Assembly: GCA_016177025.1 (NCBI GenBank)
Contig: JACOWB010000010.1
Coordinates: 1-33,767, forward strand
DNA: 33,767 bases
DNA from: Candidatus Aenigmatarchaeota archaeon
GTDB lineage: Archaea; Aenigmatarchaeota; Aenigmatarchaeia; CG10238-14; SCSR01
Direction of reading: 5' to 3'
Shown here: positions 24,831 to 25,005 of the stretch, piece after piece
Numbering within the stretch: position 1 is the first letter of the stretch
Layout: every line of letters starts with the position of its first letter
The notes under the pieces: model-generated
Database searches by the model: none
What the model was told of the DNA's origin: nothing
The model's input: the letters and a program-made list of their open reading frames with translations, nothing else
Translations under genes and position numbers: made by a program

Positions 24831-24893
24831 ATTAATAAGTTGAATTTATTAAATTTAACATAAGCGCCGATAGTCTAGCCTGGTAGGACATCA

Positions 24894-24905
24894 AAATATG
24901 TGCAA
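24894..24905 (+). other. 12-nt tRNA intron at position 29/30 (noncanonical)
   Basis: AAATATGTGCAA interrupts the 5' side of the anticodon stem between positions 29 and 30 (boundaries can slide by one A). ACAT and ATGT on either side pair into a 4-bp helix with a small loop and a 3' bulge (GCA), a relaxed bulge-helix-loop substrate for archaeal splicing endonuclease. Confidence 0.75.
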
Positions 24906-24913
24906 GCCTTCCA

Positions 24914-24924
24914 AGTTAGGAGAT
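24914..24924 (+). other. 11-nt tRNA intron at position 37/38 (canonical)
   Basis: AGTTAGGAGAT follows CTTCCA and precedes AGCTGA. Its GGAG can pair with the anticodon-loop TTCC, leaving AAG and ATA as the splice-site loop and bulge. This is the usual archaeal intron position. Confidence 0.75.
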
Positions 24925-25005
24925 AGCTGAATACCTGGGTTCAAATCCCAGTCGGCGCATCGAAAAATAGATAGAAAATTAAAAAATTCTGAAAATTAAT
25001 TCCGA

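What the first reader, a model, noticed from the sequence alone, without database searches (positions are those of the whole stretch)
24864..24959. tRNA-Gly(TCC) with two mini-introns in one anticodon arm
The anticodon arm folds correctly (TCAGC/GCTGA, loop CTTCCAA) only when a 12-nt insert at 29/30 and an 11-nt insert at 37/38 are both removed. Both are at the lower size limit known to me for archaeal tRNA introns. Only two bases of stem and the loop separate them, so the endonuclease must act on overlapping bulge-helix-loop structures, possibly in a fixed order.
Basis: partly seen in the sequence, partly recalled or inferred. Interest (0 to 1): 0.8.

Follow-up and report, generated by a model that had tools for sequence, protein, structure and literature searches.

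The report
Archaeal glycine tRNA with two mini-introns
In an uncultured archaeon the gene for one glycine tRNA is interrupted twice, by 12 and 11 extra bases that flank an eight-base piece carrying the anticodon; relatives with the uninterrupted gene show that both inserts are real introns, of a kind already known from other archaea.

Summary
Window 24864-24959 (+) is a tRNA-Gly(UCC) gene that folds only after removal of 12 nt at 29/30 (24894-24905) and 11 nt at 37/38 (24914-24924). No shuffle reached the same score (0 of 400). A same-genus genome keeps both inserts at the syntenic locus. Two other congeners have the 73-nt uninterrupted gene. A fourth has a 29/30 intron plus a 53/54 intron. 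The anticodon stem that insert 1 splits shows compensatory changes at three of five pairs. Both inserts have relaxed bulge-helix-loop splice motifs that share nucleotides 31-33, so they cannot form together. Folding favours removing intron 1 first, but does not prove a fixed order. No other UCC tRNA was found in the draft genome, and GGA is the commonest glycine codon, so the gene very likely works. The organism is an aenigmatarchaeote (DPANN) in which about 21 of 26 full-length tRNA genes carry one or two introns, mostly 11-21 nt. Multi-intron archaeal tRNAs, 11-nt introns and close introns needing sequential removal are already published, so this is a new member of a known kind. More surprising is the lineage's only detectable splicing endonuclease, which has alanine, serine or threonine at the catalytic-lysine position.

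The parts
24864..24959 (+). tRNA-Gly(UCC) gene, 96 nt, with two introns
   Evidence: Rfam RF00005 47.8 bits; own intron caller
24864..24893 (+). exon 1: nt 1-29 (acceptor 5' strand, D arm, nt 26-29)
   Evidence: conserved in congeners
24894..24905 (+). intron 1, AAATATGTGCAA, 12 nt, position 29/30 (28/29 gives the same product)
   Evidence: kept in G001, 15 nt in G003, absent in G002/G004
24906..24913 (+). internal exon of 8 nt, GCCTTCCA, nt 30-37, carrying anticodon UCC (24910-24912)
   Evidence: invariant in 13 relatives
24914..24924 (+). intron 2, AGTTAGGAGAT, 11 nt, canonical position 37/38
   Evidence: 12-nt counterpart in G001 with perfect CUUC/GAAG central helix; absent in G002, G003, G004
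24925..24959 (+). exon 3: nt 38-73 (anticodon stem 3' strand, variable loop, T arm, acceptor 3' strand)
24843..24854 (+). A/T-rich box (AATTTATTAAAT) about 20 nt upstream, possible archaeal TATA box
   Evidence: sequence only; similar A/T boxes at the same place in G001, G003, G004

Best explanation
This is the functional tRNA-Gly(UCC) gene of an aenigmatarchaeote. The precursor carries two introns of the archaeal splicing-endonuclease type. Intron 1 (29/30) is presented by a relaxed motif: outer helix 21-23/31-33, central helix 24-27 with the 3' part of the intron, 3-nt 3' bulge A-A|G30, and no inner helix. Its outer helix uses nucleotides that intron 2 needs. In the preferred order, intron 1 is excised and its exons are joined by RtcB. 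The five-pair anticodon stem then closes, and intron 2 (37/38) is presented by its own bulge-helix-loop: anticodon stem, central helix 32-35/intron, bulge A-U|A38. It is excised and ligated, giving a 73-nt tRNA. Shown here: gene, inserts, their presence or absence in relatives, compensatory stem pairs, the ligase gene and an endonuclease-family gene. Inferred: actual cleavage, its order, and that the single endonuclease found does it.
For: Best of all 0-2 insert solutions, 0/400 shuffles. Syntenic orthologue in G001 (contig JACPJT010000004.1, Candidatus Aenigmatarchaeota) keeps both inserts. G002 and G004 have the intronless 73-nt gene, and G003 has a 15-nt 29/30 intron plus a 31-nt 53/54 intron, both with perfect four-pair central helices. 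The 29/30 introns of three further archaeal Gly(UCC) genes end in the same GUGUAA|GCC. Anticodon-stem pairs 27-43, 28-42 and 29-41 each show changes on both sides across 13 genes. Intron 2 keeps its central helix while changing U34-G to U34-A. About 21 of 26 full-length tRNA genes in G000 carry such introns. RtcB and an EndA-family gene are present. No second UCC tRNA was found in the draft genome, and GGA is the commonest Gly codon in the window (165 of 505). Precursor folding: motif 1 outer helix P about 0.92, motif 2 about 0.001; motif 2 becomes 1.8-2.7 kcal/mol cheaper once intron 1 is gone.
Against: No RNA data. In G000 and G001 the central helix of intron 1 has an A24.C mismatch, and RNAfold prefers a shifted pairing (ACAU/AUGU) with a 5-nt bulge. 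RNAfold does not give a cloverleaf even for the mature G000 sequence, so folding-based order is weak. The only endonuclease found lacks the triad lysine.
Confidence: 0.93

Rival explanations
1. A decayed or split tRNA pseudogene; another Gly(UCC) gene does the work.
For: The genome is a draft, 86% complete, so a second copy could be missing.
Against: Acceptor, D, T and anticodon stems are intact with compensatory changes. G001, 93% complete, keeps the same two-intron gene, and the other Gly genes read there are GCC and CCC. Both inserts carry splice motifs.
Confidence: 0.03
2. A tRNA with a really enlarged anticodon arm that keeps one or both inserts when mature.
For: ARAGORN calls an odd anticodon, GTGC, in the unspliced form.
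Against: Congeners have the exact gene without inserts; insert lengths and positions change freely between species while the exon stem covaries; most tRNA genes of the genome carry comparable removable inserts.
Confidence: 0.02
3. Same introns, but removal has no preferred order, or intron 2 goes first.
For: A pseudo-A29 at the end of intron 1 lets three outer pairs AGC/GCU form before intron 1 is removed, and motif 1 still forms after intron 2 is removed.
Against: In the full precursor motif 2 is nearly absent from the computed ensemble, and becomes easier to form once intron 1 is removed.
Confidence: 0.3

Closest known systems
Multi-intron tRNAs of Thermoproteales (e.g. Pyrobaculum islandicum tRNA-Pro(UGG), introns 25/26, 37/38, 56/57; PMC4090602)
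   Same: Canonical plus noncanonical introns in one gene, relaxed BHB motifs, small introns
   Different: Here a DPANN archaeon; introns 29/30 and 37/38 separated by only 8 nt of exon; both near the minimum length
Closely spaced archaeal tRNA introns needing sequential removal (tRNAscan-SE 2.0 paper, PMC8450103)
   Same: One intron must go before the second motif can form
   Different: Here both motifs lie in one anticodon arm and share nt 31-33; presence or absence of both introns is known across one genus
Broad-specificity endonucleases with CSL or ASL loop, (alpha-beta)2 and epsilon2 types (PMC12397907, PMC6379350)
   Same: Noncanonical and bulge-helix-loop introns are abundant in such genomes; a conserved Lys (K34) lies at the loop position
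   Different: The endonuclease here is a single alpha-sized protein that lacks the triad Lys; no second subunit was found
Tri-split tRNA-Gly of Caldivirga maquilingensis (PMC4090602)
   Same: tRNA-Gly isodecoders broken on both sides of the anticodon, leaving a short central piece
   Different: There trans-spliced from separate genes, with a 26-37 centre piece; here one gene with two cis introns

Membership tests
Archaeal BHB-type tRNA introns | Removal restores a complete standard tRNA | tested here: met
   73-nt cloverleaf, best of all solutions; equals the length of the intronless congener genes
Archaeal BHB-type tRNA introns | Central helix of about 4 bp between exon and intron with 3-nt bulges (BHB, or relaxed hBH/BHL) | tested here: met
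   Intron 2: C-G, U-A, U.G, C-G, bulge AU|A (G001 all Watson-Crick). Intron 1: 3 of 4 pairs plus A.C; four perfect pairs in G003 and three other archaea. Strict BHB with inner helix is not met; these are relaxed BHL motifs
Archaeal BHB-type tRNA introns | Position and length within the known range | tested here: met
   29/30 and 37/38 are listed positions; published length range 11-129 nt (PMC4090602)
Archaeal BHB-type tRNA introns | Genome encodes splicing endonuclease and RtcB ligase | tested here: met
   PF01974/PF02778 protein and PF01139; activity not testable, and the triad Lys is absent
Archaeal BHB-type tRNA introns | Intron excised in the cell | not testable with these tools
   needs RNA
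(alpha-beta)2 or epsilon2 broad-specificity endonuclease | Two subunit types, or one protein of about 390-400 aa | tested here: not met
   One 189-aa gene; no second match with PF01974, PF02778 or profile A1 at E<=10 in the near-complete congeners
(alpha-beta)2 or epsilon2 broad-specificity endonuclease | CSL/ASL loop lysine next to the active site | tested here: inconclusive
   Invariant K34 after YG at the loop position in the alignment, followed by P35 in the window's own genus; no structure was solved or modelled

The most novel reading that the evidence does not exclude
Two overlapping relaxed mini-introns in one anticodon arm are removed in a preferred order by a single-subunit splicing endonuclease that has lost the catalytic-triad lysine throughout this lineage and uses another invariant lysine (K34 or K130) instead.
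Probability: 0.25. Interest if true: 0.65.

Novelty: new member of a known kind. Interest (0 to 1): 0.38.

Why it matters
It gives a clean natural series within one genus (no intron; 29/30 + 37/38; 29/30 + 53/54) in which gain or loss of tRNA introns, and the effect of one intron on splicing of the next, can be tested with matched substrates. It also shows that an aenigmatarchaeote, in a phylum for which a held-library search found no tRNA-intron study, has most of its tRNA genes interrupted by mini-introns while carrying an endonuclease that lacks a residue thought essential.

Tried and rejected
A named-genome search with ribosomal protein L3 found nothing, so a tRNA DNA pattern was used for names. 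The first regular expression for relatives was wrong and was redone. A single-intron solution and other anticodons were rejected: the best other-anticodon solution scores 18 against 26. The G002 gene first matched at 77% is Gly(GCC), not the orthologue; the orthologue is G002:C1:80896-80968. The G003 sequence first looked degenerate in its T arm, but is explained by a 53/54 intron. A second endonuclease subunit was sought and not found. tRNAscan-SE and SPLITS were not available. The papers by Sugahara et al. 2007/2008, Fujishima et al. 2011 and Marck & Grosjean 2003 were not read; the last two were looked up and are not held.

Full report
What is there. The Rfam tRNA model matches exactly 24864-24959 on the + strand. 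ARAGORN reports a tRNA of unknown identity there. The gene is GCGCCGA TA GTCT AGCCTGGTA GGAC A TCA [AAATATGTGCAA] GCCTTCCA [AGTTAGGAGAT] AGCTGA ATAC CTGGG TTCAAAT CCCAG TCGGCGC A. I wrote a caller that tries every removal of zero, one or two inserts and scores the mature fold plus the bulge-helix-bulge splice motif. Shuffles of the region gave a mean of 10.6 and a maximum of 21.0, with 0 of 400 reaching 26. In 1019 simpler shuffles only one gave two inserts of similar quality. The caller's scoring was designed by me after seeing the case, so the comparative evidence below carries more weight.

Comparative evidence. The window lies in a 571-kb draft genome (86% complete). At the syntenic place G001 has a 97-nt gene, 90% identical, with a 12-nt insert at 29/30 and a 12-nt insert at 37/38. 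G002 and G004, also same genus, have a 73-nt gene with neither insert. G003 has a 15-nt 29/30 intron with a perfect ACAC/GUGU central helix and a 31-nt intron at 53/54 with a perfect CUCG/CGAG helix, and none at 37/38. So the empty site is seen, and the two introns of the window are independent units. Outside the genus, an aenigmatarchaeote (WVZE01000017.1) and two Bathyarchaeota records have 29/30 introns in Gly(UCC) ending in the same GUGUAA|GCC. In 13 spliced or intronless genes the three outer pairs of the anticodon stem change on both sides (27-43, 28-42, 29-41), with the structure 98.9% paired overall. Intron 1 interrupts exactly this stem.

Splice motifs and order. Intron 2: C32-G, U33-A, U34.G, C35-G, 3' bulge A-U|A38, no inner helix; in G001 all four pairs are Watson-Crick. 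Intron 1: 3' bulge A-A|G30, outer helix 21-23/31-33, central helix A24.C, C25-G, A26-U, U27.G, no inner helix. Relatives have the better version of this helix, which fixes the register. RNAfold prefers a shifted ACAU/AUGU pairing in G000, but that loses a pair in G001, so I take the 29/30 register as likelier. The two motifs compete for nt 31-33. In the computed ensemble of the precursor the outer helix of motif 1 has probability about 0.92 and motif 2 about 0.001. Without intron 1, forming motif 2 costs 1.8 (G000) to 2.7 (G001) kcal/mol less. Without intron 2, motif 1 still forms. So intron 1 first is preferred, not obligatory. RNAfold does not give a cloverleaf for the mature G000 sequence, so this is inference.

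Function. No other UCC tRNA was found in G000, which is a draft, and GGA is the commonest glycine codon in 22 genes of the window (165 of 505). About 21 of the 26 full-length tRNA genes called in G000 carry one or two introns, mostly 11-21 nt and often at 37/38, some at noncanonical places; this is the only one called with two. Individual calls for other tRNAs are from the same caller and some are uncertain (for example L012, L015, L016). RtcB is intact in G000.

The endonuclease. G000 has one gene of the family, 189 aa, with both Pfam domains. The near-complete congeners and other members of the family also have one each, and neither the N-domain model nor a 13-sequence profile finds another. 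In the PDB alignments shown, M. jannaschii, M. kandleri, ARMAN-2, N. equitans and 3p1y chains all have Lys at the triad position, where this protein has Ala. Among the Aenigmatarchaeota single-domain proteins read the position is Ala, Ser or Thr, while Tyr119 and His135 are invariant, as are K34 and K130. The 400-aa epsilon-like proteins of other families in the order keep Lys. Alanine at this position abolishes cleavage in the A. fulgidus and ARMAN-2 enzymes (PMC12397907). The loop lysine of CSL/ASL enzymes has been proposed as a possible catalytic residue (same paper), and K34 sits at that loop. That K34 replaces the lost lysine is my hypothesis.

Known or new. Published archaeal tRNA introns are 11-129 nt, occur at 29/30 and 37/38 among others, and can number up to three per gene (PMC4090602; PMC8450103). 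Sequential removal of closely spaced introns is stated in PMC8450103. A search of the held library for tRNA introns together with DPANN or Aenigmatarchaeota returned no dedicated study; subscription journals are not covered. The finding is real and correctly read, and is a new member of a known kind with an unusually short, 8-nt anticodon exon.

Noticed in passing
L028:145-714 - (G000:C14): The only PF01974/PF02778 splicing endonuclease lacks the catalytic-triad lysine (Ala), as do the single-domain homologues read across Aenigmatarchaeota (Ala, Ser or Thr), yet most tRNA genes of this genome need splicing; K34 and K130 are invariant.
   Followed up: partly
L139 (G001:C6:165158-165245 -): Gly(GCC) of G001 has a 15-nt 29/30 intron (ACATAAATGGTGTAA) resembling the 29/30 intron of Gly(UCC) in G003, as if the intron moved between isodecoders.
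   Followed up: partly
L143 (G002:C5:20420-20523 +): Gly(GCC) of G002 appears to have two introns (13 nt near 29/30 and 17 nt in the variable region).
   Followed up: partly
L148:223-3102 - (G001:C2): RtcB, the tRNA ligase, is interrupted by an intein (PF14890) of about 455 aa in G001 but not in G000 or G003.
   Followed up: partly
G002:C2:74457-75833 -: The RtcB match in G002 contains five in-frame stops (1 TGA, 3 TAG, 1 TAA) within one match; insertion, misassembly or decay not resolved.
   Followed up: no
L025:1501-1603: tRNA-Ser(GCU) of G000 has a 19-nt intron at about 29/30 ending GTGTAA, the same 3' end as the Gly 29/30 introns.
   Followed up: no
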